This document shows, one piece after another, positions 10,912-36,800 of a stretch of 64,000 bases of DNA. Position numbers and translations under genes: made by a program. The notes below the pieces were generated by a model. It was not told where the DNA came from, did not search any database, and saw nothing but the letters and a program-made list of their open reading frames with translations. The stretch's first letter is position 1. Every line of letters starts with the position of its first letter. Origin of the DNA: Sphingomonas parva (ex Maeng et al. 2020) (GTDB lineage Bacteria; Pseudomonadota; Alphaproteobacteria; Sphingomonadales; Sphingomonadaceae); assembly GCF_004564275.1 (NCBI RefSeq), contig NZ_SPDV01000016.1, forward strand, positions 1 through 64,000, read 5' to 3'.

Positions 10912-11067
10912 TGGATGGCCGGAATAGAGTCCTTTCAACTCTGCGCTAATTCTCCTTCGTAAGACCGCTACCGTCCGGACCCTGGGAAAGAAATTAATCC
11001 TTTCAGTTTCGCATTCAGCGGCCTTCAAGGGCGTCCCTATGGTCAAATAAAGTCCTTTCAGTCTCGG
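10912..11067. repeat. Candidate Tn7-like transposon end with three TnsB-site-like repeats
   Basis: Three direct copies of a ~20-base element occur at about 10923, 10991 and 11045: AATAGAGTCCTTTCA, ATTAATCCTTTCAGTTTCG and AAATAAAGTCCTTTCAGTCTCG. The AATAAAGTC core is the same as in the TnsB-binding sites of Tn7 (known from that element). In the outermost copy AATA starts 11 bases after a TG at 10912, the same spacing as in the Tn7 end, though TGG stands in place of the usual TGT. The end lies 10 bp beyond nagA, and the innermost repeat overlaps the stop of tnsD. The opposite end was not found. Confidence 0.55.
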
Positions 11068-12830
11068 TCGGACTCGCTCCGTGCGCGCCGGCCAGGCGAT
11101 CCATCTCGACCTAAAACTTCGTTCAGAACGGCACGAGCAAGCTCCAACCTGTCCGTTCGACGTCCTACCAGGCGAAGAAGTTTCGTTGGGGTCGGTGCAT
11201 GCCCTCGCTCCATCTCCGCCGCAATCGCGGCCCGCATTTTACGCCGTAACGCATGGTCAGGTATCTCGACGACATTGGCTAGCGCAGCCTTGGTCTTAGG
11301 CAATCGGCTCAACGGCCTTTGAAGCAAATAGCCGCGAGGAATCGCGTGCGCCAGAGCATTAACCGTCACGCGCGCCGGAGGAGGCAACTGCCTGATTCGA
11401 TCCGCCTCGGCATGCACATTTTTAGCAAGCTCATCGTCAACTTGTGTCCAGTCCGTCTTTGAAAAGCGCCGATCTGCCGCTACCGGAATATAGTACTTTT
11501 TCGGCGGCTGCCGATCTTTCCGCACCTTCTTCCGTCCCGACTTCGCTCCCCCCTGCGTACAGGGGGATTCGGAGCGTAGCGACCATGGCACATCAATGCC
11601 ATGGGTCCGAGCAATGACTGCAACGGACGGCCCTGAGACCCCCAACTTGGATGCTATTGCTTTACAAGTTTCTCCAGCGGCGACCGAGGTTTCGAGGGTG
11701 GGGATTGCGGACGGGCCGAACGACCTCAGGCGAGGAGGATGCAACGTTCCGTCGTCATCCACACGACGGGTGTGAACATAGCCGCAGGAGCACTCGAACT
11801 CTCCGACATAAGCTCCCCTGTTCCGCCGAACCGTGATCTTCGTCACGGGCTTCTCGACCGCGTGCGCGATGAGCGGATTCGGACAGCCCCACGGTCCATC
11901 TCCGAAAGGCGTCGATGAAATTTGGGACTTTGGCAGGGGACTTACAAAAGAGAATACGATCGCTTGGTAGAACGGAGATTCCGACACGAGGCGACACCTC
12001 CAGGATCTCTCATGGGACTGCCCGGAAGATAGTTGCGGCCAGATCTCCAATACGGAACCGAAGTGTCGTACGATCGCGTCGCTTAACTGCGCCCGGGCTA
12101 CCTGGCCTTTCTTTCGAGACTTGAACCCAGAAGCGATCACTAGCTGACGCAGGGTTGTACCATCTGTCAAAAGTGGAACTCGCCAGCTATCGAGCATCGC
12201 GTGCCCAACCAAGGCGATGCGGTTCAATTTGTCCATGTCGTCGCCTACTACTTGCGCAGAGAATGGACTAGAGGACGGACAATTCGCGGAATTGGCACTC
12301 ACATAGTTCCTGACATTGCGCGAGACATCGACACTGCTATCTACCAGCAGCGATCCATGGCTCGGGCAGACGAGGCTCGTGTCCAACTGGTGCCGCCTCA
12401 TCCAGTACGGCTCACCAAACTGTTGAAGCGCATCATCATTGCAGTCAGGGCAATAGCGCAACCTAGCGCGGGTCGCAGAACCGGTAGCCGCGCCAACCTT
12501 CTGCGAGAATAATGACGAAGCACCCGACATCAATTCAAGCAGCTCTTCGAGGTAGGCCGGTGAGCGAAATGCTGTGTAAAATGGCAAAATCGTGTTTTCC
12601 AACGCGACACGCCGGACGGTGATCTCCCTGCCTTTAGGGATTCGTTGAACGAAAGCATCCAGTCTCGTGGGAAGAAAGTAAGATGGCTTGGCTCCCTTAG
12701 TGCCAAACAGCACGTCAAGTGCCGCAGTTTGAGCAACGCCGGTATGTCGAATATAGCGTGCGATAACGCTATACAGGAGTTCGTCAGGATATATTTCTGG
12801 AAAGTACGATACCTCCTGAATTGACGACAC
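11058..12830 (-). CDS. tnsD: TnsD/TniQ-family transposition targeting protein (orphan)
   Basis: 590 residues. The N-terminus carries the TniQ signature (FPEIYPDELLYSVIARYIRH at 10-29; LFGTKG; YFLPTRLDAF). A zinc finger follows with C127, C130, C155 and H158 in RYCPDC and PYWMRRHQLDTSLVCPSHG. The long C-terminal part contains a second Cys cluster (GEFECSCGYVH) and helix-turn-helix-like stretches (CKAIASKLGVSGPSVAVIA), as in TnsD proteins that bind a chromosomal attachment site. No tnsA, tnsB or tnsC is in the window, so this gene is a remnant or works with genes elsewhere. It is transcribed towards the candidate element end beyond nagA. Its GC content looks lower than that of its neighbours, as expected for transferred DNA. 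Confidence 0.82.
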   Translation of the reverse strand: MSSIQEVSYFPEIYPDELLYSVIARYIRHTGVAQTAALDVLFGTKGAKPSYFLPTRLDAFVQRIPKGREITVRRVALENTILPFYTAFRSPAYLEELLELMSGASSLFSQKVGAATGSATRARLRYCPDCNDDALQQFGEPYWMRRHQLDTSLVCPSHGSLLVDSSVDVSRNVRNYVSANSANCPSSSPFSAQVVGDDMDKLNRIALVGHAMLDSWRVPLLTDGTTLRQLVIASGFKSRKKGQVARAQLSDAIVRHFGSVLEIWPQLSSGQSHERSWRCRLVSESPFYQAIVFSFVSPLPKSQISSTPFGDGPWGCPNPLIAHAVEKPVTKITVRRNRGAYVGEFECSCGYVHTRRVDDDGTLHPPRLRSFGPSAIPTLETSVAAGETCKAIASKLGVSGPSVAVIARTHGIDVPWSLRSESPCTQGGAKSGRKKVRKDRQPPKKYYIPVAADRRFSKTDWTQVDDELAKNVHAEADRIRQLPPPARVTVNALAHAIPRGYLLQRPLSRLPKTKAALANVVEIPDHALRRKMRAAIAAEMERGHAPTPTKLLRLVGRRTDRLELARAVLNEVLGRDGSPGRRARSESDRD

Positions 12831-13309
12831 CGGCTATATTCCTCTAATCTCAGTCCCAGCCTTGGGATCTCCATTCTCAAGCCCTAAGCAGTCAAGGCAT
12901 CGCCGCCCACGTTTGATGCCAGGTGCTGGAAGACTCAAACTCGTGCCAGGGTCCGCATCGCACCATTCGTCAGCCGCTGGCTTCAACGTTCCTAGAGGCG
13001 GATGAGATTTATGCCTGCCGGTTCGAACACACCTTTGCGTTGGTCGGGAGGAGGCCTGTGCGGTGTACGACCCATGCATATGTCCGGGGTGGCGAAAATT
13101 TTTGTGGAAGCCAAGATGCCGAAATTACCTAGATCCTCCTTTCCGGCCACCCCAGTGCCTGAGGCCGGCTTCGGCGCTGTTTTCGGGAGGAACTTTGCAC
13201 CGCAGGAATGAAGCCACTACGACGTACTCCGCAGGACGATTCTGGAAGATTCGGTGGCGGCTCAGGATCAGTTTCGTGCGATTGAGGAACTTCCTCTCGC
13301 TGTCGGAGA
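12831..13309. other. 479-bp region upstream of tnsD, no convincing gene
   Basis: A minus-strand frame at 12834-13079 (81 codons, ending DPKAGTEIRGI) stops just before tnsD. It could be the tail of a lost upstream transposition gene, but no family feature supports that. The right half has stop-rich frames and short A/T-rich stretches (AAAATTTTTGTGG near 13097) and should contain the promoter of the MerR gene. Confidence 0.4.
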
Positions 13310-13729
13310 ATGCAATTGAGGATAGGCGAGCTCGGCGCTGCGACAGACACCAAGGTGGAAACCATCCGCTATTACGAGCGAGTGGGACTCCTGCCCCGCG
13401 CCTCGAGAACCGCCGGCAATTACCGGGCCTACGACAGCGGCCACCTTCAACAACTCATGTTTATCCGACGAGCCCGCGAACTTGGGTTCGAGGTGCACCA
13501 GATAAGGGAGCTCCTGACTCTGTCCGACACGAAGCAATGTTCGGGTACGGCTTTCGCGGAAATCGTCGAGCAGAACCTGGTCGTCGTCAACCGGAAGGTG
13601 CGAGAGTTGCATGCCCTGGCGCGCGAGCTCGATCGCTTGCTCTCGGAGTGCCAGCGAGGAGCCAATCCGAAGTTCGGTTTTGCTGAAGCGTTGTCAGACG
13701 TTTCAGCCACCGACCCGGGCATAACCTAG
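13310..13729 (+). CDS. MerR-family transcriptional regulator
   Basis: 139 residues. The N-terminal winged helix is typical of MerR (LRIGELGAATDTKVETIRYY, ERVGLLP, RELGFEVHQIRELL), followed by the dimerising helix. Cysteines at 77 and 114 correspond to two of the metal-ligand positions of ZntR/CadR/PbrR proteins, but the third C-terminal cysteine is absent, so metal specificity is unclear. No efflux gene is adjacent; the target is unknown. The ATG at 13310 follows GGAGA closely. It sits on the boundary between the Tn7-like remnant and the uncharacterised island. Confidence 0.8.
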   Translation: MQLRIGELGAATDTKVETIRYYERVGLLPRASRTAGNYRAYDSGHLQQLMFIRRARELGFEVHQIRELLTLSDTKQCSGTAFAEIVEQNLVVVNRKVRELHALARELDRLLSECQRGANPKFGFAEALSDVSATDPGIT

Positions 13730-13855
13730 CGAAGCGGCGCCGGAATGCCAACCTTGGTCCGCCGGCAGGCAAGGCAACCAGCGTGATCAGGGTTGTCCGA
13801 CGCCTTCCCCCTGGGCACGCGCTAGGCACTTAAGCTATATCGGTGAGACCAAGCC

Positions 13856-15484
13856 ATGCGCTTCAAAAACCTCGACAGATATCGCACCGGCGGCGCTGCC
13901 AATCAGATGCACCTGAGCCTTCCCGTGCCCAAGACCCCCGATGGCAGAGTCTATCGCTTCTCCCCGAACGAGAACGCCCACCCACGTCACTTCGTGCTCG
14001 GCGATCCGGAGCGGCCTGAGGATATCAGCGACGACAAGCGCGCTCGCATGAAGCTGGAGCCGGGTTCGTCTCAGACGGTCTGCCCGTATAGCGGCGTCAT
14101 CGCCGACGACGACGAGTTCATCCACCCTGACGATCGCGAGGCAGCGATCGCGATGGTCAAAGATGCCGCCGTTCGTGAAGTTGAGGACGCCCTCACAAGC
14201 ATGTTCGAGGGACTGAACCGACGGACGCCGCGCAAAAGCTTGGTGAGCATCGAGGCCAAAGTCAGGAACAACCCTCGCCCGCGGCTGCGCTTCTATCGCG
14301 ACGATCTCCTTCGGGAGCTGATCTGTGATCATTGCGGTCGGGATTACGGTGTCTATGCCATTGGCCTCTTCTGCCCCGACTGCGGCGCGCCGAACCTGCG
14401 CCTCCACTTCGCGCGTGAGGTCGAACTGGTCGACGCGCAGGTCCAGCTCGCCGACGGCCTCGAGCCTGACCTCCAGGAGCTCGCATACCGGTTGCTGGGA
14501 AATGCCCATGAGGACGTGCTGACCGCATTCGAGGCGACGCTGAAGACGGTCTACCTCTTCGGGCGTGAAGCTGCTTTTCCCGGCGACCCGGTCGCCAATA
14601 TCGGAAACGCTTTCCAGAATGTGGAACGAGGACAGAAGCAGTTCGCGGAACTCGGTTTCAATCCCTTCGATGTCCTCGAGGACGAGGAACTCGCGGCTCT
14701 GAAGCTGAACATTCAGAAGCGCCACGTCATCGGTCACAACCTCGGCGTAATCGATGCTAAATTTGCCGACCTATCGGGAGAGGCCGGCATCGGCGAGACG
14801 GTGCACCTGGTCGGCGAGGACACTCGCGCATTTGCCATCATCGCCCAGAAGGTGGTCGACGGCATCGACGGCTGGTTGGGCGGGGTCGCCATCCCACCCC
14901 GCGTGCGAGAGGCGCCACCACCGGGCGAGGAAACAGAAGTGACGAAAACGCCGGCGGCCGATCTGCGCCTGAGCGAGCTGGGCTACCGCCTCGGAGCGTG
15001 GCTTGCCGGTGCTTCGGAGAGGGGGCTCAACGGCCGCATCAATGCTGATGCCGTCCTGAGTGCCTTCAGCGACGTTCCGATACGCGATCTTCAAGACGCG
15101 GTGGCCGAGCTGGAGATGGACGGCTACATCTCGGCAACGACGGTCTCTGGCAGATCGCTCCCGCTGATGGGCTACCGGCTGGAGCTGTTCTCGACCTTCG
15201 ACCCGCTGACGCGCAAGACGGACCCGACACTCGACGCGGCGATACTTGCCGCTCTCGCCCTGGACTTCGACGGCAACGTCAACGTAGCGGAGCTGCACGC
15301 GAAGTCCGGCTGGGACCACCGCCAGTTCAACCCGGCTCTCGGCGTTCTGGTCAGCCGCCTCGACGAGCGGCGGGTTAGTAAGACTCACGACGCCGAATAC
15401 CCGACGAGGATGTTCATCCTAGGCCCGCAAGAAAGAGTCGAGCTGAAGCGATTCAAGGAACGCCATCCGCCAAGCACGAGATGA
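13856..15484 (+). CDS. HEPN-motif, zinc-ribbon protein of unknown function
   Basis: 542 residues. A four-cysteine zinc ribbon spans C157-x2-C160 to C173-x2-C176 (ICDHCGRDYG ... LFCPDCGAPN). A helical segment contains KRHVIGHNLG, which has the R-x4-H spacing (R289, H294) of HEPN RNases. The C-terminal ~200 residues look like a winged-helix region (LSAFSDVPIRDLQDAVAELEMDGYI). HEPN proteins are frequent RNA-cutting effectors in bacterial defence and toxin systems; here that role is inferred from one motif. A Cas2-fold gene follows 58 bp downstream on the same strand. I do not recognise the whole-protein family. Confidence 0.6.
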   Translation: MRFKNLDRYRTGGAANQMHLSLPVPKTPDGRVYRFSPNENAHPRHFVLGDPERPEDISDDKRARMKLEPGSSQTVCPYSGVIADDDEFIHPDDREAAIAMVKDAAVREVEDALTSMFEGLNRRTPRKSLVSIEAKVRNNPRPRLRFYRDDLLRELICDHCGRDYGVYAIGLFCPDCGAPNLRLHFAREVELVDAQVQLADGLEPDLQELAYRLLGNAHEDVLTAFEATLKTVYLFGREAAFPGDPVANIGNAFQNVERGQKQFAELGFNPFDVLEDEELAALKLNIQKRHVIGHNLGVIDAKFADLSGEAGIGETVHLVGEDTRAFAIIAQKVVDGIDGWLGGVAIPPRVREAPPPGEETEVTKTPAADLRLSELGYRLGAWLAGASERGLNGRINADAVLSAFSDVPIRDLQDAVAELEMDGYISATTVSGRSLPLMGYRLELFSTFDPLTRKTDPTLDAAILAALALDFDGNVNVAELHAKSGWDHRQFNPALGVLVSRLDERRVSKTHDAEYPTRMFILGPQERVELKRFKERHPPSTR

Positions 15485-15542
15485 TCCCTAGACGTCCTTA
15501 GGCGCGAAGTTCATCGAGATTCTCGGAACTGAGGAGTCACCA

Positions 15543-15821
15543 ATGGCCGTGTTCTTAATCACGTACGACTTGGTCGCAGAGAAGAGCGGCCATGATTACG
15601 AGCCTCTATGGGAAGAGCTCGGCAGGGTCGACGCGGTCAAGAGCCAGCTGTCCGCGTGGCTCCTCGCCGCGAACAACACGCAGAAGGAGGTCCTGGATCA
15701 CTTTCGAACATTCGTCGACGACGATGATCGGCTCATGGTGATCCAGGTCTCGAAGAAACCTAGTTTCAGCAAAGCGCTCAAAGGCACAAACGCCTTCCTT
15801 GATGAGCACTTCGGGAACTAA
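15543..15821 (+). CDS. Cas2-like ferredoxin-fold protein (SinR/VapD-type)
   Basis: 92 residues: MAVFLITYDLVAEKSGHDYE at the start, and a late strand DRLMVIQVSKKPSF. The pattern of YDL after strand 1, a central helix, and a DRLMVI strand matches the small Cas2/VapD/SinR-like superfamily, whose members include metal-dependent nucleases and structural subunits. It is not part of a CRISPR locus: no cas1 or repeat array is visible. A GGAG sits seven bases before the ATG. It follows the HEPN-motif gene on the same strand and may be co-transcribed with it. Confidence 0.65.
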   Translation: MAVFLITYDLVAEKSGHDYEPLWEELGRVDAVKSQLSAWLLAANNTQKEVLDHFRTFVDDDDRLMVIQVSKKPSFSKALKGTNAFLDEHFGN

Positions 15822-15844
15822 GCTTCGACATAGCGCCCGAAGCT
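15821..15844. terminator. Possible bidirectional hairpin between convergent genes
   Basis: AGCTTCG-N10-CGAAGCT forms a 7-bp stem between the Cas2-like gene and the convergent minus-strand gene. It has no U-run, so a terminator role is only suggested by position. Confidence 0.3.
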
Positions 15845-15888
15845 GTCTCGGACGCGATATTCACTCGCCCGTCCAGTCCAGAGGTCAT

Positions 15889-17319
15889 TCAGGGAGCGAA
15901 GGGATCGTCGGGTACGCCTAGATCGACCGCGATGAAGCGACGCGCCAGGCGACGCATCACATCTGCAGCATTCTCGAGCCTTCGCAGCTCAGCAGCCTCA
16001 TCGGGGTCGGAAACCCGGTCCAGACTGGCATGGGCGACCGCCACCCGGCACGCGGCATAGATGTACTTCTCCGGGGAATCGGCACCGCAGGCAGCGAGGA
16101 ATGTCGGTATTGAGTGCTGGTCACGAGGGTCGTCGAGCACGGCACTCAAATTGTCTGCGATCCACTTCGTACCGGCTTTCCAACCGACGTGCCGCAGTTC
16201 GATGATTTTGTAGTAATTGAGGACGGCGTAGCTCACGAGGAAATTCTGCTCGGCGTTCCTCGCCTCGCGGTAAAGGGCGAGCGCTCTCCGTACCTCCTCG
16301 GAAGCCGGCATCGACCTCGCAAAGGCCCATTGGTGAGTCGAGGTGAAGGCCAGGTTCCGGCGCGCTAAGGGGAGCGGAACGGGACTACCTGCCCAACCGC
16401 CCTCCACGACGGCGAATTGGTCATCGCACCATGAGAGCATGCTCAGAAAGCGGTTGATGACGGTCTGCGCCTGTTCAATGCTAAGCCGGTTAGAGTTCAG
16501 GTCGATGCTGATCGATTGCACGAACTCGTTGGTCTTCGGCATCAGCACGAGCCGGTATTGGTCGAAAGCGACGAGTTCCTCGTGTCGCGGCCAGGTCAAT
16601 TGGTTGTCGACCCCGATGTTGAGGAACGTCGAGGACGGGGTGACGCCTAGGCGCTCCAGCCGCGTTCGTTCAGCCTCCTCAGCATCGTACTCGGAAGCAT
16701 CCTTAGGCACAGGCTGCGGGTGGCGGCGATCTCTGGCGACGCGAGCCGCCAGCAAGTCGAAGAAGCGCCGGCTGAGAGCGATTTCTCGCGAGACCGAAGC
16801 ATAGCGCGCAGCGGCATCAAAATCGATGTCGGCCCCTGGCTGCAGCAGGGTGACAGCCTCCTGCGGAACATAAGCCGCGCACTTCCGCGTTCCGCCGCTG
16901 TCATACGCGATTCTTGCCCAGCCACGGCTGTTGATAGCGATCGGAGCCAACGAAAGGTGCACGGCTACGACGCTCCCCCTTACTTCCGGATCTCCGATGA
17001 TTCGGGTTAGGGCGGTGATGAATTCGCCGGCTCCCGCGAACGCGGTCTCGACCCCTCCGACCGGTCCATGACGCTGGAGGATCGCGCAAGCATGCCCTGC
17101 CCACTCCGGAATCAGAGGCGTCAGACCCAAGACCGCGAATGCGATCTCCTGGTCAGTAAGAGGCCGCCCTCGGTTTTGGCGGCCTCGAGGCAGCCGAGCG
17201 TAGCTACGAAGTGACGCGAAACGCCTCTGGAGGTCATCGAGCCCGTAGGGGCCGACGTCCGCATCACGGCAGAACTCAGCAAGGACGCTCTCAAGATGCT
17301 TGGCGAGCACACGCGTCAA
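15889..17319 (-). CDS. Uncharacterised protein with C-terminal HEPN-type motif
   Basis: About 476 residues, cytoplasmic and with no membrane segments. The central part carries YREARNAEQNFLVSYAVLNY (residues ~330-350). The C-terminal region contains YIYAACRVAVAHASLD, an R425-x4-H430 arrangement that fits the HEPN RNase motif; the layout reminds me of MauJ-like/Apea-type HEPN proteins. The start is uncertain: TTG at 17319, or GTG at 17310 with GGGGCGGG in front. Either way it overlaps the end of the upstream gene, so the three minus-strand genes 19163-15889 form one operon. Function is unknown; RNA cleavage is inferred. Confidence 0.6.
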   Translation of the reverse strand: MTRVLAKHLESVLAEFCRDADVGPYGLDDLQRRFASLRSYARLPRGRQNRGRPLTDQEIAFAVLGLTPLIPEWAGHACAILQRHGPVGGVETAFAGAGEFITALTRIIGDPEVRGSVVAVHLSLAPIAINSRGWARIAYDSGGTRKCAAYVPQEAVTLLQPGADIDFDAAARYASVSREIALSRRFFDLLAARVARDRRHPQPVPKDASEYDAEEAERTRLERLGVTPSSTFLNIGVDNQLTWPRHEELVAFDQYRLVLMPKTNEFVQSISIDLNSNRLSIEQAQTVINRFLSMLSWCDDQFAVVEGGWAGSPVPLPLARRNLAFTSTHQWAFARSMPASEEVRRALALYREARNAEQNFLVSYAVLNYYKIIELRHVGWKAGTKWIADNLSAVLDDPRDQHSIPTFLAACGADSPEKYIYAACRVAVAHASLDRVSDPDEAAELRRLENAADVMRRLARRFIAVDLGVPDDPFAP

Positions 17320-18061
17320 CCCGCCCCAAATCGCAGGTCTCCAGCCCGCCTGCCCTCAGCCGCTCGAGGAGATCGTTCATGCGCAGCATGATCAATGCCA
17401 CTTCCATCTTGTGAACGATCGTCATCTTCGCGATCTGTGGACTGCCTGCACGGTAGCTATCGACAATTTCGCTGCGCCGGCGCGCGAACCGCACAAATTC
17501 GGCAGCGACAGCATTCCCGGCCTCCGCCTCAATCACGTTGCGACGGAACCGAGCCGGATCGTAGGTGGCGCAGAGGTCCGGCAGGAATAGTAGCTTCGGA
17601 GCGCCATTCAATTGCGGCGTGACGTCGAGCAGCTCGCCCCCAGGCGTGGACCAGATTCCATGATGCTCCGCCTCGTAATAAGCACCGCGCAGGTGCCAGA
17701 TGGCCCAGCCATGCACGATGGAGCCACCACTGCGCTCGACTTCCCGTGCTACGTTGTCGAAGCAGGATCCGAGCACTGCGCCCGTCCCCGGCACCGACGG
17801 AACGAAGCACGGCGCTTCGTCGGAAATGGTTCCGCAGAAGGCCAAGAGTTCTGGAGTGAGTTCACGCGGCACCGTATCGAGCTGCAAGAGGATCGTCCTT
17901 CTACCCACGTCGTCGCATGCGACGGCAGCGTTAGCGCCACGCCAGAGGCTGCCGTACTCATTCTTATCAGATCGAACCTGACGCTGCAGCGTCCGTATTG
18001 CCTGCGACTCCATCCTCGACCGCTTGATGTCGCGGGAAAAGGGCCATCCTTCGTCCGTCAT
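17291..18061 (-). CDS. Uncharacterised protein with a possible Cys-His-Asp triad
   Basis: Up to 256 residues from ATG 18061; an internal ATG at 18013 would shorten it by 16. The central block SCFDNVAREVERSGGSIVHG ... YYEAEHHGIWSTPGGELLDV suggests a papain/transglutaminase-like core with C100, H133 or H134, and D146 in the usual order. This assignment is an inference from spacing and from the recurrent H-x-W-x-G-x-L-D-V-T-P pattern I associate with such proteins. The start overlaps the nuclease gene by 95 bp (47 with the later ATG), and the end overlaps the HEPN-motif gene. Operon partners suggest a joint role. Confidence 0.6.
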   Translation of the reverse strand: MTDEGWPFSRDIKRSRMESQAIRTLQRQVRSDKNEYGSLWRGANAAVACDDVGRRTILLQLDTVPRELTPELLAFCGTISDEAPCFVPSVPGTGAVLGSCFDNVAREVERSGGSIVHGWAIWHLRGAYYEAEHHGIWSTPGGELLDVTPQLNGAPKLLFLPDLCATYDPARFRRNVIEAEAGNAVAAEFVRFARRRSEIVDSYRAGSPQIAKMTIVHKMEVALIMLRMNDLLERLRAGGLETCDLGRVDACARQAS

Positions 18062-19163
18062 CGTCTCGACAGGAGCGTCCCCAACTACTCATGGCGAATA
18101 GGTGGACGAGCTTGAATTCTGCGAACGGACCATTGCCCTCCGGGACGAACGGCTGGACGTAGATGTGCGGACCGTCGAAATAATCATCCCCGTCTTCATC
18201 GATGTCGATGATTGATTCGTAGGGCAGCACCAGCATCAGCTCGTACCAAGCCCGGTTCCCCTCTGGCAGACTGCTCCACTGGTCAAAGGCTTCAGCTCGC
18301 GCCGCGTCAGTCTCAGGCCGCTCCGGGTCAGGCAAGGGGTCATCATGCGGCGGAGCGTCATTCATCCTTTCCGCGTAGTCCCAGTGCTCACCATCATCGT
18401 CGATGAAAGCAAAGTGCCGGCGGAAGAGGAGCTCAACGCCAAAGGCACCACATTTTCCAAACCTGTATACTGCCCATCGGCCGCGGACGCGGCGGGGCTG
18501 CTCTGTCCTGTCGAGGAACGGGTAGCGGTCGTCGCTCGCGTCCCGGACCATCACGGACGTGTGCGGCTGGAGGAGACGCTTCGCCTTCCGCTTCATGGCA
18601 AGCCGGCTGCGTACCTCGGTCTTGATAGATCGGCGGCGCGTCTGGAGGGAGACACCGAAATAGGCGAACAGCAGATGGTCGTTCTTAGGCTGGTAAAGCT
18701 GGTCTTCAATTTCGCCTTTCCCCCAAAGCTTCGCTTCCTGGAAACCAAGGTCCCGCGCCCGTGCGTAGAAGCGGTCTCTCGCCTCGATCGAAAAATCGCA
18801 TGCGGCCGCGAATATGAGGCCGTAGAGCCGGGCTTCACGAGCGCTGGGCAGCCCTTCCAGGTAACCCTCGATCTTCTTCGGCCCGATCGCCTTCTCCCGC
18901 TTGCATTGTATGAGCCACTGGCGCTCTTCCACGGCGCCACCAGACAACGCACCCTCGAGGCTCTCCAATTCAACTGCTTCGGCGCCGTAGACGAGCTCCG
19001 TCGCACGCGCATCGAACCCCTCGTCGCTTCCGGTTCTTCCAGTCGCCTCGAGGTCCCGCCAGGAGCGAAAGTCGTAGAGGAGCTGCCTGACCAGATCCTC
19101 AAAGCGGTGAGGCTCAAGGTCCTCAAGGTGAAGCGGACCGAGCGTGCGAGTAACAGGGGCCAT
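17967..19163 (-). CDS. Mrr-like PD-(D/E)XK nuclease
   Basis: 398 residues. The first ~190 residues form a restriction-endonuclease-like domain: LEDLEPHRFEDLVRQLLYDF (E22), then GRTGSDEGFDARA (D47, D51) and the strand WLIQCKREKA with Q86-x-K88. This is the usual catalytic pattern of Mrr-type nucleases, which cut modified or foreign DNA. A large C-terminal region (acidic, IIDIDEDGDDYFDG) is unassigned and could be a sensor. It is the first gene of a three-gene minus-strand operon with overlapping neighbours. A methyltransferase is absent, so a classical restriction-modification pair is unlikely. Confidence 0.72.
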   Translation of the reverse strand: MAPVTRTLGPLHLEDLEPHRFEDLVRQLLYDFRSWRDLEATGRTGSDEGFDARATELVYGAEAVELESLEGALSGGAVEERQWLIQCKREKAIGPKKIEGYLEGLPSAREARLYGLIFAAACDFSIEARDRFYARARDLGFQEAKLWGKGEIEDQLYQPKNDHLLFAYFGVSLQTRRRSIKTEVRSRLAMKRKAKRLLQPHTSVMVRDASDDRYPFLDRTEQPRRVRGRWAVYRFGKCGAFGVELLFRRHFAFIDDDGEHWDYAERMNDAPPHDDPLPDPERPETDAARAEAFDQWSSLPEGNRAWYELMLVLPYESIIDIDEDGDDYFDGPHIYVQPFVPEGNGPFAEFKLVHLFAMSSWGRSCRDDDGRRMALFPRHQAVEDGVAGNTDAAASGSI

Positions 19164-19254
19164 GGCTCTCTACCGTCCTGATAGTCATTTGAATGGTGAG
19201 CCGGCACCCAAGGCCCGACCTTTGAAGCGCCTCACGCTTCCGGGCGAGTGCCCG

Positions 19255-19695
19255 CTAAGTCTGCTTGCGAGAGGAACCCGTTTCCCCAGCATGATTCCAA
19301 TCGGCGATCAGCTCGATCACTTCACAGCGGGAGGCTTTCCCTCCGGCGCACGATTTTGCAACCTTATTCAGTTCGTCTCGAAGCAGCTCCAGCTGCGCGA
19401 TCCGCTCCTCGATATCGACAAGATGCCGTCGGGCGATAGCTCCGGCCTCGCCGCAGTCGCGATCTGGCTGGTCGGCCAGTTCCATTAGTGAGCGGATCTC
19501 ATCCGTGGAAAAGCCGAGAGCCCGACCGTGACGGATAAACGTCAGCCGTTTGAGGTCGCTTTCCCGATATGTCCGCCGGCCCGAGGCCGTACGCGCAGCA
19601 GCCGGCATCAGGCCGATATCCTCGTAGAAGCGGATCGTGTTGACCTTGGTGCCGGTCCGCCGTGCCAGGTCGCCGATCATCAGCACGTTCGCCAT
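19255..19695 (-). CDS. MerR-family heavy-metal regulator (ZntR/CadR-like)
   Basis: 146 residues. The helix-turn-helix is MIGDLARRTGTKVNTIRFYE and the dimerisation helix contains RRHLVDIEERIAQL. Cysteines C81, C116 and C124 occupy the positions of the metal ligands in ZntR/CadR/MerR-type sensors for divalent metals. It is divergent from a CDF cation transporter, and two CTCCAG/CTGGAG dyads lie between the genes. On this basis it should activate the transporter in response to Zn, Cd, Co or a related ion; the exact metal cannot be read. Confidence 0.85.
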   Translation of the reverse strand: MANVLMIGDLARRTGTKVNTIRFYEDIGLMPAAARTASGRRTYRESDLKRLTFIRHGRALGFSTDEIRSLMELADQPDRDCGEAGAIARRHLVDIEERIAQLELLRDELNKVAKSCAGGKASRCEVIELIADWNHAGETGSSRKQT

Positions 19696-19703
19696 GAACC
19701 ATC

Positions 19704-19718
19704 CTCCAGTCGCTGGAG
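19704..19718. promoter_or_regulatory. MerR-type dyad next to the regulator start
   Basis: CTCCAG-TCG-CTGGAG lies nine bases before the merR-type start codon, so a regulator bound here would cover its own translation start or promoter. It shares its arms with the stronger dyad at 19777. Confidence 0.5.
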
Positions 19719-19776
19719 ATAGAGACGCGCGGTTCGGATGGAAACAGCTTGTGCCCCTCGCCCCCTGGGGCTTGAT

Positions 19777-19793
19777 CCTCCAGTGACTGGAGG
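19777..19793 (+). promoter_or_regulatory. MerR-family operator before the CDF transporter
   Basis: CCTCCAGTGACTGGAGG is a perfect 8+1+8 palindrome, directly preceded by TTGATC (19772-19777) as a -35 element, with the transporter ATG 16 bases downstream. This is the arrangement of MerR-controlled promoters, where the dyad occupies a long -35/-10 spacer. Confidence 0.65.
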
Positions 19794-19808
19794 TTGTACG
19801 AGCAGCGC

Positions 19809-20444
19809 ATGTCAGAGAGCGAATCGGGCTGCTGCAGCTGCACAGGTGACGTCGGCCGTGCCGGGAACGACGCCGCTTACCGGCGCGCTCTCTGGTGGGT
19901 CGTGATCCTAAACGTCGGCTTCGGCCTCTGCGAGATCATTGGCGGCTTCCTCGCCAACAGCCAGGCGCTGAAGGCGGACGCTCTCGACTTTCTCGGTGAC
20001 GGGTCGATCACCTTTGTGGGGCTCCTCGCGCTCGGATGGGCGCCCGGCACCCGTGCCAGAGTGGCTCTTACCCAAGGGCTATTCCTCGGCGCCCTCGGCG
20101 TATGGGTACTGGGAATGGCCTTTTGGCGGGCACTCAAGGCTGTGCCGCCCGAAGCCGAGCTGATGGGTGCTATTGGCGTAGTTGCTTTGGCAGTCAACGT
20201 GACCGCCGCGCTGATCCTAGCTCGCTTCAGAGAGGGCGGCGACGCCCAGGCGAGAGCGATTTGGCTGTTCTCGCGTAACGACGCTCTCGCCAACGTCGCA
20301 GTGGTCGCCGCCGCTGCCCTGGTGTTCGCCTTCGGCAGCGCTTGGCCGGATCTCATCGTCGCGGCAGCGATCGCACTGCTCTTCCTCCATTCGTCCTGGG
20401 AAATCACCCGTGATGCGAAACGCGAGCTTGGGGGACGCCGGTGA
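19809..20444 (+). CDS. Cation diffusion facilitator (CDF) metal transporter
   Basis: 211 residues with about six transmembrane helices. The N-terminus MSESESGCCSCTGDV is cysteine-rich and may capture metal. Helix 2 holds ADALDFLGDGSITFVG and helix 5 holds SRNDALANVAVVAAA, the paired D-x3-D-type metal sites of CDF exporters. It exports divalent metal from the cytoplasm in exchange for protons. It lacks the C-terminal cytoplasmic domain of CzcD, as do other short members. Its start follows the MerR operator and is chosen at ATG 19809. The methyltransferase-like gene follows 23 bp downstream. Confidence 0.88.
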   Translation: MSESESGCCSCTGDVGRAGNDAAYRRALWWVVILNVGFGLCEIIGGFLANSQALKADALDFLGDGSITFVGLLALGWAPGTRARVALTQGLFLGALGVWVLGMAFWRALKAVPPEAELMGAIGVVALAVNVTAALILARFREGGDAQARAIWLFSRNDALANVAVVAAAALVFAFGSAWPDLIVAAAIALLFLHSSWEITRDAKRELGGRR

Positions 20445-20467
20445 CATGCTGAAGAAGGGAAAAGTGA

Positions 20468-21055
20468 ATGGCGCCCGCGTTGCTCGCATTCTTCACGATC
20501 TTTTTCGTGACGGCCCTCGTGCTGCCCACGTGGCGGATCTGGAAGCGTGATCGGGTGAATGCGCTCGTTCTGCCGTACGACGACACCGCACAAGGACTGG
20601 TGGCGAAGTGGTTTCGAGCCACCCTATTCGCGATCTTCGCCGTCCTTCTGGCACTCTGCCTCGGTCTATCGTCCGACGCGCTTGGACGCTTGGCATGGCT
20701 TGAGGCAGCGCTCATCCGCACCGCCGGCGGGGCTCTGCTCGTGTTGTCGCTCCTCTGGGTCGTCGTGGCGCAGGCGCAAATGGGCGCCTCGTGGCGGATC
20801 GGCATCGACGCTGGTTTACAGCCCTCGCTCGTCAGCCGAGGTGTCTTCGGGCGGAGCCGTAACCCCATATTTCTCGGAATGCGGGGTGGTCTGCTGGGGC
20901 TGTTCCTGACGCTCCCCAACGCGGTGACGATGGCGATTTTTCTTCTTGGAGAGATGCTGATGCAAGTGCAGGTGCGGCTCGAAGAAGCTCATCTCGCTGC
21001 AACTTTGGGGCAGGATTACGCCTCGTACCGACGCTCCGTAAGAAGGTGGCTCTGA
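20468..21055 (+). CDS. Isoprenylcysteine carboxyl methyltransferase-like membrane protein
   Basis: 195 residues with about five hydrophobic helices. The C-terminal block AQMGASWRIGIDAG ... GVFGRSRNPIFLGM ... EEAHLAATLGQDYASYRRSV matches the ICMT/PEMT-like family, in which an integral membrane enzyme uses S-adenosylmethionine. Bacterial members rarely have a known substrate, and some sit in metal-efflux loci, as here between a CDF transporter and the czc genes. It is likely in one operon with them. The start is ATG 20468, after a GAAGGGAAAAG-type ribosome binding site. Confidence 0.82.
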   Translation: MAPALLAFFTIFFVTALVLPTWRIWKRDRVNALVLPYDDTAQGLVAKWFRATLFAIFAVLLALCLGLSSDALGRLAWLEAALIRTAGGALLVLSLLWVVVAQAQMGASWRIGIDAGLQPSLVSRGVFGRSRNPIFLGMRGGLLGLFLTLPNAVTMAIFLLGEMLMQVQVRLEEAHLAATLGQDYASYRRSVRRWL

Positions 21056-21099
21056 TGGTTGTCTCGCATCGAGCCAGAACTCCGCCTATATTGGAGGGG

Positions 21100-21468
21100 A
21101 TGGTCCTGTTGAAGCTCTGGAAGGCGATGGTTCGTGCCACGGCAGCGTTGCTGCTGATGGCGGCAATCGTCACGCCTGCGCTCGCGGAGATCGGCTGCGC
21201 GGAAGAGAGCGTCACTCACCTCTCGGAGGCTCTGAACGCCGGCGAGCATGCTGCCGAGGTCACGGCGGCAGGACAGTCGGGCGATCAGGACAACCAGGGC
21301 ATGGCTGTCGGCCATTGCGCCTTCAGCCACGGCCATTGTGCCGGCCTGCCTTCGGTCAGCAACGCGACGGCTCCCTCGCCACGTGTGGCGGCAGCCTATG
21401 GCCTGCTGCGGACGAGCGCGCTCGCGCCGGCCTCCCTCGACACCCCAGAGCGCCCGCCGAACGCCTGA
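21100..21468 (+). CDS. Small exported protein preceding czcC
   Basis: About 122 residues. The signal peptide MVLLKLWKAMVRATAALLLM...TPALA precedes a mature region with GHCAFSHGHCAGL, a Cys/His cluster suitable for metal binding. An alternative ATG at 21127 would give a shorter but still valid signal. Short periplasmic proteins of this kind often precede czcCBA in sphingomonads; their role is unproven. It is transcribed with the efflux genes, 56 bp before czcC. Confidence 0.65.
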   Translation: MVLLKLWKAMVRATAALLLMAAIVTPALAEIGCAEESVTHLSEALNAGEHAAEVTAAGQSGDQDNQGMAVGHCAFSHGHCAGLPSVSNATAPSPRVAAAYGLLRTSALAPASLDTPERPPNA

Positions 21469-21524
21469 GATCCAGCCGCTCCCGCCCGACGGGACAGGTT
21501 CAATCCGGATCTTCAGGAACGACA

Positions 21525-30971: not shown

Positions 30972-32198
30972 TCATCCTCCGACTCGTGGGCCGGCACACG
31001 AACATTCTGAGCCGCTATAGAGCAATTGGACTATGCTGGAGGCCGTCAGGCTCAGCCGGCGAAGCACATTGGCCAAGTGCCGCTGCTTGATCGGATGTTG
31101 ATATAGTTCCGGCTCTTCGATCCCCAAGATCAGAGTAGGCGCATCGGGTGGAGCGGCCTGCTCATTGCCGTCACCTCCAGCCTCCCCTAGCTCGCCGACA
31201 GTTGTCGACGTGCGAGCGAGGTGCTGCAACAGAGTGAAGACGAATGCCCGCTGTAATCCGTGCCCTTGCCGGTCCACAGGACCGCCAAACCCATCGTCGC
31301 TGAGCGAGACATCTGCGACCGGTAAGGGGACGGGGAACTCCCCGACGGCCCTCCAACTGAGTCCAACTGCAGCCTCCTGATAGAGATTCTGTAAATCACC
31401 TGTCAGCCGCCCAGCCAGCAAACCAAGCTCCGGCATATTCTCCGGAGCAACAAGCTCTTGGTACCTTGTCGTCATTTCGTTTTTGAATTCGAGGATGTCC
31501 TGCCGTTGGAGAATGGAACTGCGAACAACGAGCTCCAAGAGCCGACCTATTGCGCTTGACTTAGCGTCGGCAGCGTCGGCCGCTGCCTCACGCACGGCTG
31601 GCACAAATACAAACGTCGTGAACTTTTGGAGAGCCCCTCGGCTAGCGTTTTGAAAGCCAAAGAACTGCCCGTCATCAAGGTGTAGCGTAAGCTGGTCGAG
31701 ATGGTCTCCCTCCCAGGCTAGCAGGGCAGCGTCCACAGCTGCAGCGCTCGAGGCCGCTGGAAGCCCTGCGTAGTCGGGATTGTTCGCTCTAAGGTCTCGA
31801 TAAGCATCTCGTTTCAAGCCTGCGGCAGTTTGCGAGCGGATGGGAATGAAGTCAGCATTTTGTAGAACGGCGCCATGATACCGGCCACTCAACGGCGTGG
31901 CGTCAAAGATCCTGGTCACCACGAGCTCGCCGTCTCTAACTCGGCTTTCGAATGCTTCGATCTCGGCTTGCGTCAAATGCCCAAAGGTTAGTTCGATCTC
32001 GATCGCCTGACTCTGGTCGCGTCCAAAAAAGTCGTCGGCGTCCAAGGATTTTGCGGTAGAATAGAAGCGCTCGATCGCTTTAAGAATGCTGGATTTGCCT
32101 GCCCCGTTGGCCCCGACGAGGGCCATGTGCGGCCCCATTGCCACCGAGACATTCTTGAGTGATCGAAAGTTCTTCACTCGCACATGGACAAGCTGCAT
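30972..32198 (-). pseudogene. Truncated OLD-family AAA ATPase
   Basis: From ATG 32198 (GGGGGGATC ahead): MQLVHVRVKNFRSLKNVSVA, Walker A GANGAGKSS at 29-37, and Walker B LILGIEEPELYQHP near the end. In intact OLD nucleases a TTHSP segment and a C-terminal TOPRIM nuclease domain follow. Here the frame turns into unrelated sequence (RRLSLTASSIVQLLYSGSEC) and stops, so the nuclease half is lost. It faces the sbcC remnant tail to tail, and the 140 bp between them is unrecognisable. OLD/Gabija-like proteins act in phage defence; this copy is probably dead. Confidence 0.75.
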
Positions 32199-32232
32199 AC
32201 GCGTAAGATCCCCCCCAACGTGGAGTTTGCCA

Positions 32233-32514
32233 ATGAATGATGCAATCATCAAGGCGATTGAGGATCGACGGCTGCTTACCTTTCGATACAAAGGTGTTGA
32301 GCGAACTGTCGAGCCGCACACGTATGGCTGCTCCCACAAAGGAGCCAACGGCCTATGCGCTTGGCAGCTGAGCGGAGGCAGTGCCTCGGGATATCGCCTC
32401 TTTCTAGAGCCCGAAATGGGGGATATCCAGGCGTCTGACCACCTGTTCGACGGGCCTCGTCCCGGCTATCACGCTGGTGACGACAGATTTATGACCATCT
32501 ACGCAGAACTATAA
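32233..32514 (+). CDS. Short WYL-domain-like protein
   Basis: 93 residues: AIEDRRLLTFRYKGVERTVE then EPHTYGCSHKGANGLCAWQL. This is the beta-barrel WYL fold in miniature (ligand or nucleic-acid sensing), without the usual helix-turn-helix. It is divergent from the OLD-like gene, starts 34 bp apart, and overlaps its likely promoter. It might have regulated that gene. Confidence 0.6.
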   Translation: MNDAIIKAIEDRRLLTFRYKGVERTVEPHTYGCSHKGANGLCAWQLSGGSASGYRLFLEPEMGDIQASDHLFDGPRPGYHAGDDRFMTIYAEL

Positions 32515-32618: not shown

Positions 32619-33809
32619 TCAGAGAGGTCTAGTCGGAGACAGCTCCTCCTGCTCGTGGACGAGATGCTCGAGCGCGATCAGGTCCCAAAGCGTCGTAATC
32701 GCGCTGTCCGTACATTGACCCCGCCGGATGCCTGGCTGGCGCTCGGCGACAGATCCAAGGTCGCGCAAGAGCTGCGGGTCCATCAAGTGGGGTCGCAGCC
32801 GGATGCCGCACGTTGCCAAGGCGAGCTCCAGATGTCGGAAGATTCGGACGCCGCCCGCATCCATGTCGCCCCAGTGAAATATGGGCACATCTGCCAGTGA
32901 GGCAATTCGAACTATGGCGGCCAGCGCGGCCCGCGAGGGGAACCCACCAGTATAAAGGACTAGGCCGCCATCGGACGAGGAGATCTCGCGGACATGTCGG
33001 ACGAAGGAAGCGTAGTTTTCCACCGTAAGCACGTAGGTCGCCGGTCCGGACAGGCCGACGCGGCTACCCTCCTCGGGAGGCAGGCCCACGAATGGCAGGG
33101 CCGGCAGGCTCTCCCCGTCCAGCACGATCGGACCCGCGAGAAGAAGTGGCTGGGCGAGCCGGACGATCCCAGCCGACGCCAGCCGCTCTGCAGGACGAAG
33201 CTTGAGGCCATCATCAAGCTGTGGGAACAGCGTCATCATGATGTGGACCACGGCGGGAAGCTGGCGCTCGAGCGCCTTGCTGTCTCGAGCCGTCCGCCTG
33301 GAGAAAGTGCGGTAATCCACCTCGGAGACATCCACCTCAAGGGAGCGGGCGCCTGCGGCAGCGGCGAGATCGAGCACCTGGCCGAGGCTGACGTCGTCCA
33401 ATGGGGCGATACCGTATCGAGAAACGCCGCGCTCCCAGGCAGCGCCGACCTCGTCTATAACTTCGTGGGCGCCAGCAAGGAGGTCGGAACGTTGCCGAAC
33501 GCGAGACAGAGCCTTCGCCACGGCGATGCGCGAAGGATCCCTTCCCAGGCGCCGGTATAGCACCTCCGGCTGAAGCAACGACACACCGGTCGCTGTCCAC
33601 TCACCCGCGACCCGCCGCCGAACGACCTTGATGCCCCCCTCGCGCTCCAGCTCCGCCAGCTCGCCAAAGAACGCATCCTGCGTCTCGATGTTGGGAAAAG
33701 CCTCCAATTCGATCCGCGCGGTGAGGCGCGTGGCCGAGGGGTTGGCCTCGTGTCGCCTGATCAATTCCGACAGCAAGGCATCGGTCTGGAAGAAGCCCTT
33801 ACGACTCAC
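32619..33809 (-). CDS. jetD: Wadjet anti-plasmid system nuclease subunit JetD
   Basis: 396 residues. The N-terminal DUF3322-type half is followed by a C-terminal TOPRIM-like DUF2220 domain (VLTVENYASFVRHV with E, and PIFHWGDMDAGGVRIFRHLE, the D-x-D motif). In Wadjet this subunit cuts circular DNA that the SMC-like motor has extruded. It is the last gene of the operon; its ATG overlaps the jetC stop by four bases. The length is normal for the family. Confidence 0.9.
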   Translation of the reverse strand: MSRKGFFQTDALLSELIRRHEANPSATRLTARIELEAFPNIETQDAFFGELAELEREGGIKVVRRRVAGEWTATGVSLLQPEVLYRRLGRDPSRIAVAKALSRVRQRSDLLAGAHEVIDEVGAAWERGVSRYGIAPLDDVSLGQVLDLAAAAGARSLEVDVSEVDYRTFSRRTARDSKALERQLPAVVHIMMTLFPQLDDGLKLRPAERLASAGIVRLAQPLLLAGPIVLDGESLPALPFVGLPPEEGSRVGLSGPATYVLTVENYASFVRHVREISSSDGGLVLYTGGFPSRAALAAIVRIASLADVPIFHWGDMDAGGVRIFRHLELALATCGIRLRPHLMDPQLLRDLGSVAERQPGIRRGQCTDSAITTLWDLIALEHLVHEQEELSPTRPL

Positions 33810-36800
33810 TCCGCTGCTCGCGCTCCCGGCAGCTGCAGCGCCAGCTCATCGTCACTGAGATGCTGCGGATTGGCGGCACGCATCTCCGCGCGTGCATGCG
33901 GCTTGATCCGCACGGACTCCGCAAACGCGTCGTCGCCGCTCCTGAAGACGTCGACTATGGTGTCCAGGTTCTCGTAGACGATCGCCCTCTTCTCGGTCGG
34001 CGCAGCGATCGCGACCTGGAGCCCGATCGAACGGTAGAATTCCAGGAGCGAACGCTGGTTGGGGCCGTCGAGCTTACTGAAGGCCTCATCGAAGACGGCG
34101 AGGCCCAGCCCCAGTTCCCGCGGGTCAGACATGCCGCGGATGCCATGATAGATGCTCGCGAGCGCCGCTCCGATGACAACATAGAAGGGAACCTGTCGCT
34201 CGGCGCCACTGGCAACGCCGCGCCGCTTCTCGAAGCTGTAGGACCGGCCAGTCGTAAGGTCGCGTGTCCGAAGGTCGAAACTGAAGTAATTTCGGTAATC
34301 CTGGAAAATTGTGAAATCGAGTTGGTCATCGCCCAAGAGCATCTCAACCTGCTTCAGGGCCCGAGCATGGCGTTCATCCCGGACCTCTGCGCGGCCGAAC
34401 AGGGCGTCGAGGGCGCTCTCGTCATCCTCGCAGTCGCGCGCGAGGCGGTGCAAGTCCTCGAACTCGGGCCTGACGTGGGCGTGAAGGTGGTAGGTTTCAT
34501 TATGGAGAGGGCGCGACCGTAGCGCCTGCCTCAGCATCTCCACCTCGCCCTCGAGCGATCGAAAACGGTTGTTCAGCTCGTGGACGAACGCGGTGCGGAA
34601 GAGGCGGGTGACGCGGTCCGTGGCCTCATCCGCCTGCCGACGGTACTGGACAAGCTCATTGCCCTCCAACGCCTGAATGCCGTCCTCGACCCAGGGCCGT
34701 ACATCCGCGACGATCCTCAGCTCCGGCGATCCGAGGGGGGCGTCGCCGAAGTCAATCTTGTAGTGGCCAAGAGCCGAACGGATGTCCCGATCAAGCTCCC
34801 GATGCGCCTCACGGGCCGCAAGCGCCTCCCGTGCCATCTCATTCACGATCCGCGCCGGGGCCCGGGGTCGTAACGTTCGGTAGCGCTCTGCAAACGAAGC
34901 AAGCCTTGCACGGCTGGAGACCTCCTTGCGGAACAGTCTCCTGCGAGTAGCAAAGCAGAGCCGGGAGCCGACCTGGCCTTCACCGGCGCCGAGCTTCAGC
35001 TCCGTTTCCCCGCGTGCGTTGCGAAGCGAACCCCGCCTGTCGATCAGCTCCTCGCGATCCTTCTCAAGGCTCGTGATCATCGCCAACGCGCGACGTTCCG
35101 CATCCAGCAGCGCGGGATCGATCATTGCAGCGATGCGGGCAAGGCTCGCCCCCGCCTCCCGCCGCCGCTCTTCGAACCCATCGATCTCGCCGGCAAGGTG
35201 CTCGAGCCGATCACTCGCGGCCGGCTCGATCGCGAGATCCGACAAGCGCTTCAGCACATCCTCATAAAAGGAGACGTTCCTCTCATGGTTGGCGAGAAGA
35301 CTCTGGAGTTCCTCAACCCGCCGATCGAGCTCGGCTTGCATGAGCGGAGCGGCGGCACGGCCGATCTTCAACCCTTGGGGGCGGCGCATCTCCGTGATCA
35401 GCCCGTCATAATAGGCGCCATCGACCATCACGGCCCGGCCGCCGCCGAGGAGAGTTTCCTGATCGTCCGCCAGAACGACGTTGCCGAGACGAAAGACGAT
35501 GAAGGCCATCGCCAGACTGTCGTCGCTGCCCAGCGTGGCCGCGAGGGTCCCCGGACGCGCTTCACGCGCGTGACCATCCAGCCGACGCGTGTTCGCGACT
35601 CGGCAGCTGCCATAGGAGTCTCGCCCCCGCCTCAGGATCTCGACCGCCCGCGACGCATGCTCGGGGTCGACGATGATCGCCTCCCGATCCCGGCCCAGCA
35701 GCGCTTCGGCAGCGTTCCGCCAGCGCTCGTCGAGGACTTCTGACACCTCGCAAAGGGCGCGCGGCCGCATCCCTTCGCCGCGCAACGCATCCATCAGCCT
35801 GATCGTGGAGTCCTCGAGCGACACCCGGCCCGAGCGCGCCTGGTTCCGCCGCTCCACCGCTGCGGCGAGATCCTCCCGAACCTTCCCCATCCAGCCGATC
35901 GCATCGTTTCGGCGCTCGGTGACCTTCTGCAGGCGAGACACGGCTGCCGTGCGCACCGCAGCGATCAACTTCTCCATCGCGACCGGATCACGAGGCCAGT
36001 CGGGCGGCCCCTCCTTCTCGCTCGCGGCCTGAATCTCCTCGAGTCCGCGGATGAGTTCACCAGGCGCAATCGGCAGGAGTCGCTCCCGAAACGCGAGCAG
36101 CTGCGCGCCTCGTGCGACCTGCAAATACCGCGCCTGCAGCCGGGCCATGGCGGCCGCCCGGTCACGCTCAATCTCACGGATCTGGAGCTCAACGACCGCA
36201 CGGCGACCCGCCGCGTTCTCTGCGGCCAGCTGCGCTCTCACGCCCTCCAATATCTCCCGCTGGCTCGCGATCTCACCATCGGCTCGCCCGATTTCATCGA
36301 TCGTGAGCTGCAAGAGCCGTTGCCGCTCTCGAAGCTCGGCGGCATATTTGACCAAGGCCCCACCAGCCTCGATAAGAGAGGCCAGCTGCTCGACCCCCCT
36401 CGCGACATCTTCCTCCTCCTGCTTCGCGACAAACCGATCCACCAGGGACTTGAGCGAGCGCAGCGCCTCGAGCCGCCTCTCCAATTCGTGGATGGTCTTC
36501 TGAATCTCCCGATAGCGCTGGATGGACTCACGCAGCTCCCCGATGTCGATCGGGTTCGCCGCGAGCAGGTACGACTTGACGAACTGCTCGAGCGAGCTCT
36601 TATCGACGAACGAGAGGGCGAGCACGAATGCTCGTGCGAACCGCTCCGGCTCCGGGGTCCGTCGGCCGGTAAACAGGATCCGCATGTACTCCCGGATGTA
36701 ATTGCGGGCCACGTCATGCGTCATGAGCGACTGGCCCGCGGCCGCGCACGCGGAGACTAGTCGCTGCCGGACCACCGTCCAGGATCCTGACCGCGGGCGC

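What the first reader, a model, noticed from the sequence alone, without database searches (positions are those of the whole stretch)
13856..19163. Uncharacterised island of HEPN-motif, Cas2-fold, papain-like and Mrr-like genes
Two converging gene sets (zinc-ribbon/HEPN-motif protein plus Cas2-fold protein; PD-(D/E)XK nuclease, C-H-D candidate, HEPN-motif protein) lie together between a Tn7-like remnant and metal genes. DNA- and RNA-cutting domains with overlapping reading frames and no housekeeping role fit a defence system. I cannot match the combination to a named system.
Basis: inference. Interest (0 to 1): 0.75.

Follow-up and report, generated by a model that had tools for sequence, protein, structure and literature searches.

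The report
Defence island with HEPN winged-helix gene
This stretch is a patchwork of separately travelling, mostly defence-linked bacterial genes, and its best-supported member is a predicted RNA-cutting protein whose tail domain also turns up on a different type of immune protein, hinting at an interchangeable sensor.

Summary
The reading as one undescribed combined system is not supported: of 168 loci fetched from elsewhere, 2 hold relatives of two of the five genes (both A or its tail module with C), and B, D and E never accompany another member. The reading as defence cargo holds: among 132 neighbour proteins of A relatives, 242 PADLOC families matched at E<=1e-10, against 3 among 132 control proteins, and the window also carries a complete Wadjet system. 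The new point is gene A (13856-15484): zinc ribbon, HEPN domain with R289-H290-xxx-H294 invariant in 38 of 38 relatives, and a C-terminal tandem winged-helix module. The module also sits on TIR proteins and stands alone near SIR2, Gabija-like and AbiE genes. In a related genome a TIR-module protein and a C homologue lie beside the same kind of MerR and Czc genes. I propose that A is a one-gene abortive-infection candidate whose module gates a toxic effector; gating and RNase action are inferred. B is an orphan Cas2-like gene, C a MauJ-family protein with RxxxxH, E a Mrr-like nuclease; D keeps Cys and His, but its papain-like fold was not confirmed.

The parts
13856..15484 (+). Gene A, 542 aa: zinc ribbon, HEPN domain, C-terminal tandem winged-helix module; one-gene defence candidate
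   Evidence: no Pfam family above cut-off
14324..14383 (+). Zinc ribbon C157xxC160...C173xxC176 of A
   Evidence: Four Cys in 38 of 38 and 8 of 8; PADLOC PDC-M14A over residues 73-178, 37 of 38 members
14396..14878 (+). HEPN domain of A (residues 181-341), with E226xxxK230 and R289-H290-xxx-H294
   Evidence: Helices 181-200, 204-240, 276-294 and 320-341 in the model, motif at the end of 276-294; invariance; YutE (1ylm) third in Foldseek, E 0.22, probability 0.75
14948..15472 (+). Tandem winged-helix module of A (residues 365-539), shared with TIR proteins and stand-alone proteins
   Evidence: Two helix-helix-hairpin units in the model, SarA/MarR Foldseek matches with probability up to 0.97 but E 0.33, module HMM hits
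15543..15821 (+). Gene B, 92 aa, orphan Cas2-like protein
   Evidence: Relative L025 (51%) passes Pfam CRISPR_Cas2, E 2e-5; no CRISPR-like array in 11000-21500
15889..17319 (-). Gene C, 476 aa (likely start GTG 17310), MauJ-family protein with conserved R425-x4-H430
   Evidence: Pfam MauJ E 7e-27; motif in all covering relatives
17291..18061 (-). Gene D, 256 aa, Cys-His protein related to stand-alone and SEC-C-annotated proteins; fold not confirmed
17967..19163 (-). Gene E, 398 aa, Mrr-like PD-(D/E)xK nuclease with D51, Q86, K88
   Evidence: Pfam Mrr_cat 1.8e-4; alignment A9; relative in a viral contig L029
19255..19695 (-). MerR regulator marking the metal-gene side of the block, matched in G605
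   Evidence: 45% to a MerR gene of L152
32619..39370 (-). Wadjet JetABCD in the same window (context)
   Evidence: PADLOC Jet families, E 3.7e-122, 0, 1.9e-74 and 5e-197

Best explanation
The stretch is a cargo block of a defence island, made of genes that move separately, set beside a metal-resistance module. Gene A is its clearest defence gene and probably works alone: the C-terminal tandem winged-helix module perceives an infection-linked cue (invading DNA or a nucleic-acid signal is my guess) and holds the HEPN domain inactive until then; the released HEPN domain cuts RNA at R289/H290/H294 and stops the cell. Shown: domain layout, invariance of the motif, re-use of the module on TIR proteins, enrichment of defence genes around A relatives. 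Inferred: RNase activity, gating, the cue, and the abortive outcome. C, E, B and D are read as separate cargo: C a second HEPN-like candidate, E a Mrr-like nuclease, B an orphan Cas2-like protein, D a Cys-His protein of unknown role.
For: A relatives at 48 genome loci, 29 of 48 with the module. Motif invariance fits three HEPN criteria that I saw as passages of PMC3710099: Rx4-6H, a polar residue after R (N, D or H), and an acidic Ex3[KR] motif; the motif lies at the end of a helix as described there. Module re-use: TIR proteins L017, L084, L152 and L173, and stand-alone proteins near SIR2 (L082), an ATP-binding/UvrD pair (L170) and AbiE genes (L172). PADLOC neighbours 242 families against 3. 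G605 shows TIR-module plus C homologue beside MerR and CzcCBA. Lower GC, 0.591 and 0.616 in 12001-20000 against 0.647 for the window, fits acquired DNA.
Against: No fold match of the A model reached E 1e-3 in PDB or BFVD, and the top PDB row was a CodY model, not HEPN. Ex3[KR] is not kept in the three most distant relatives. 19 of 48 A loci lack the module, so it is not essential to A. Control regions came from 10 genomes that are not matched by species to the A loci; some A loci are near relatives, and many PADLOC models are redundant, so 242 is not 242 independent hits. No activity was measured.
Confidence: 0.6

Rival explanations
1. All five genes form one multi-gene defence system.
For: Converging sets with overlapping frames E-D-C, and nucleic-acid-cutting domains in one 5.3 kb block. 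C lies near A in L033 and near a TIR-module protein in L152.
Against: 2 of 168 outside loci hold two members, none holds B, D or E with another; in the 48 A loci B, D and E are 0 of 48 and C-like 1 of 48 (37 of 48 have 5 kb or more on both sides). Order-wide searches agree.
Confidence: 0.05
2. E, D and C form one co-transcribed system, a Mrr-like nuclease with a Cys-His protein and a HEPN-like protein, while A and B are separate.
For: Same strand and overlapping frames.
Against: C, D and E relatives occur at 18, 31 and 4 outside loci and never together, though some of these loci have short flanks and E relatives are few; only G409 in the order set has C and D, on different contigs.
Confidence: 0.12
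3. C works together with the winged-helix module, A in this window and the TIR-module protein in G605, so the pair C plus module-effector is the unit.
For: Both outside loci with two members are module plus C (L033, L152), and the window makes a third. The flank with MerR and Czc-like genes is alike in the window and L152.
Against: The C-like gene of L033 is only 25% identical and about 3 kb from A; C stands without the module in L014, L015, L016 and L160; 47 of 48 A loci lack a C-like gene. A shared insertion site would explain it.
Confidence: 0.1
4. The module is a DNA-binding autoregulator of its own gene, and A is a toxin of a toxin-antitoxin type kept low by repression rather than an infection-gated effector.
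For: Foldseek matches of the module are to MarR/SarA-type regulators; short stand-alone module proteins exist; six A loci share a regulator-like neighbour cluster.
Against: Matches are weak (E 0.33 or more). The module is fused to the effector in 29 of 48 A loci and to TIR domains, which fits allosteric gating better than repression.
Confidence: 0.2

Closest known systems
HEPN superfamily RNases (PMC3710099)
   Same: R289-H290-xxx-H294, E226xxxK230, motif at a helix end; zinc-ribbon and wHTH fusions of other HEPN families are listed there (passages)
   Different: No named HEPN Pfam family hits A; the passages that I saw describe no zinc ribbon-HEPN-tandem winged-helix protein sharing its tail with TIR proteins
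PADLOC candidate PDC-M14
   Same: PDC-M14A profile matches the zinc-ribbon part in 37 of 38 A relatives
   Different: PDC-M14A is a 152-position profile covering residues 73-178 only; neither A nor B hit another PDC-M14 profile, and no paper with PDC-M14 was found
TIR-domain defence proteins (such as Thoeris ThsB)
   Same: TIR_2 proteins carry the same C-terminal module
   Different: Effector is HEPN, not TIR, in the window
Mrr type IV restriction nucleases
   Same: E has Mrr_cat with D51, Q86, K88
   Different: C-terminal part (about 160-398) has no Pfam hit
Cas2
   Same: B family reaches Pfam CRISPR_Cas2 through relatives
   Different: No CRISPR-like array in 11000-21500; Asp9 replaced in 1 of 4

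Membership tests
HEPN superfamily (gene A) | Conserved Rx4-6H motif with polar residue after R | tested here: met
   R289, H290, H294 in 38 of 38 and 8 of 8; criteria from passages of PMC3710099
HEPN superfamily (gene A) | Second acidic residue in Ex3[KR], present in many families | tested here: met
   E226 38 of 38, K230 37 and R 1 of 38; not kept in the three most distant rows of A1
HEPN superfamily (gene A) | All-helical HEPN fold | tested here: inconclusive
   Helical bundle in a model of pLDDT 85.7; YutE third at E 0.22, no match at E<=1e-3
HEPN superfamily (gene A) | Metal-independent RNase activity | not testable with these tools
   Needs biochemistry
HEPN superfamily (gene C) | Conserved Rx4-6H motif with polar residue after R | tested here: inconclusive
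   R425-x4-H430 in all covering relatives, but the residue after R is V in the window; no profile link to A and no PDB relative
PADLOC PDC-M14 | PDC-M14A protein together with its partner | tested here: inconclusive
   PDC-M14A part only; no partner profile hit by A or B
Mrr nucleases (gene E) | Mrr_cat domain with D...QxK | tested here: met
   22.1 bits against cut-off 21; residues in 5 of 5
Cas2 (gene B) | Cas2 domain | tested here: inconclusive
   B none; L025 above and L158 below cut-off; 3exc_X at E 0.071
Cas2 (gene B) | CRISPR array nearby | tested here: not met
   No array-like direct repeats in 11000-21500
Papain/transglutaminase-like (gene D) | Catalytic Cys-His and matching fold | tested here: inconclusive
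   C100 12 of 13, His 13 of 13; Asp replaced in 2 of 6; model pLDDT 71.6 with the other four models at 50 or less; no matching fold in the rows shown

The most novel reading that the evidence does not exclude
The tandem winged-helix tail is a mobile sensor cassette of bacterial immunity: the same module is plugged onto different killers, a HEPN RNase in gene A and a TIR enzyme in its counterparts, and acts in trans as a small protein beside SIR2 or Gabija-like effectors. Genomes swap the killer at one hotspot while keeping the sensor.
Probability: 0.35. Interest if true: 0.75.

Novelty: new variant of a known kind. Interest (0 to 1): 0.5.

Why it matters
If the module is a sensor shared by HEPN and TIR effectors, one cue could be studied with two easily assayed outputs, RNA cleavage and NAD loss, and the module would be a handle for finding further one-gene immune proteins. 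It also shows how a tempting 'new system' can be a hotspot of unrelated cargo.

Tried and rejected
One system of five genes: rejected on co-occurrence. A link between the HEPN-like parts of A and C by profile comparison: none found. PDB sequence relatives: none convincing for A, C, D or E. Papain-like fold of D: no match. Viral contigs: no A, C (single query) or B relatives; E 1, D 1 then 5, C 2 with an alignment. Phages: no match to the A module. Papers: VPA1262 2 listings without use; the MauJ search was swamped by chance words; PDC-M14 0 papers; searches for HEPN with winged helix, TIR and zinc ribbon gave PMC3710099 and others, listings apart from passages of PMC3710099 and PMC11514479. 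In the PADLOC test I used 33 of 48 A loci (13 dropped as near-duplicates, short or truncated, and L076 and L077 not taken; some similar loci such as L063 and L064 stayed) and 33 of 36 control regions; proteins were longest-ORF calls capped at 800 aa, and only the first 25 families are printed.

Full report
Observation. Frames E, D and C overlap. The block has lower GC than the window, 0.591 and 0.616 in 12001-20000 against 0.647.

Gene A. No Pfam family passes its cut-off. PADLOC's PDC-M14A matches residues 73-178 at E 4.7e-9 and 37 of 38 relatives. A scan of genome contigs gave 48 loci. In 38 aligned sequences the four ribbon Cys, E226, N251, F253, Q254, R289, H290, H294 and D300 are invariant and K230 is K in 37 and R in 1. 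In a wider set of 8 the ribbon Cys, R289, H290 and H294 remain, but Ex3[KR] does not in the three most distant rows. The model (pLDDT 85.7, pTM 0.58) shows an N-terminal ribbon part, a helical bundle with the RHVIGH motif at the end of helix 276-294, and two winged-helix units at 366-536. Foldseek gave no PDB match at E<=1e-3; YutE (1ylm), a HEPN protein by PMC3710099 (passages), ranked third at E 0.22, and SarA/MarR-type regulators matched with high probability but poor E. BFVD gave nothing at E<=1e-3. The Rx4-6H motif, the polar residue after R, and Ex3[KR] are the criteria that PMC3710099 gives (passages).

The module. An HMM of residues 365-539 from 24 sequences hits 29 of the 48 A loci. 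It also hits TIR proteins in L017, L084, L152 and L173, and stand-alone proteins: 172 aa beside the TIR gene in L017 and L084, about 255-290 aa in L079-L082, L170 and L171, and shorter frames in L083, L172 and L174. Beside these, annotation names a SIR2 protein (L082), an ATP-binding protein and a UvrD helicase (L170; 'Gabija-like' is my reading), and AbiE genes (L172). On plasmids, six of the 30 listed records (51 matched) with a match to the L152 module are annotated as TIR proteins there. L079-L081, L171 and L174 have no obvious annotated effector directly beside them, which is against a strict effector pairing.

Defence context. Of the 132 neighbours of 33 A loci, members matched 242 PADLOC families at E<=1e-10; the list is headed by SoFic and WYL with 4 members each, PDC-S24 and PDC-S04 with 3, and QatD, RmrA, AbiEii, GajB and capP with 2. 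Of 132 control proteins from 33 regions of 10 genomes, 3 families matched: mad2 in 2 members and two Csa3 models in 1 each. The models are redundant, so the ratio overstates the excess, but the direction is clear. In the window, Wadjet JetABCD (32619-39370) and an OLD/AriA-like ATPase (30972-32348) lie nearby.

No single system. B, D and E were found in 0 of 48 A loci and a C-like gene in 1. Over 168 outside loci, 69 hold A or its module, 8 B, 18 C, 31 D and 4 E; 2 hold two of them, L033 and L152, both module plus C. Some loci are short or fetched twice, so these are not independent counts. In 346 genomes of the order: E 1, C 10, D 12, B 6, own genome included.

The hotspot. In G605, a genome of the same family, a TIR-module protein, a 361-aa protein and a C homologue (57%) lie beside a MerR gene and CzcCBA genes that match those of the window. 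This is one case; I read it as a shared insertion region with a swapped killer.

Other genes. C: Pfam MauJ, R425-x4-H430 kept; a VPA1262-family gene neighbours it in L014. D: Cys and His kept, fold open; one relative lies in a CBASS region. E: Mrr-like, found alone on plasmids and in a viral contig. B: orphan Cas2-like.

Verdict. Real genes in a defence island, not one system; A is a promising one-gene candidate with a shared sensor-like module. Mechanism is inference.

Noticed in passing
window 32619-39370: Complete Wadjet JetABCD set on the minus strand.
   Followed up: partly
window 30972-32348: AAA ATPase matching Old and AriA profiles (E 1.5e-34 and 7.3e-32), directly beside the Wadjet set.
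   Followed up: no
window 11058-12830: TnsD/TniQ gene next to the end of a NagA-like gene at 10902; no other Tn7 gene was recognised in the few neighbours scanned.
   Followed up: partly
L014 2393-5773 and L022 8838-10472: VPA1262-family genes lie beside a C homologue (L014) and near an E homologue (L022): another possible defence family.
   Followed up: no
L028 1734-5435: A D-like gene lies just past a CBASS cyclase operon on an Agrobacterium vitis plasmid.
   Followed up: no
L079-L082, L170, L171: Proteins of about 255-290 aa with the module share an N-terminal stretch of about 90-115 aa of unknown role.
   Followed up: partly
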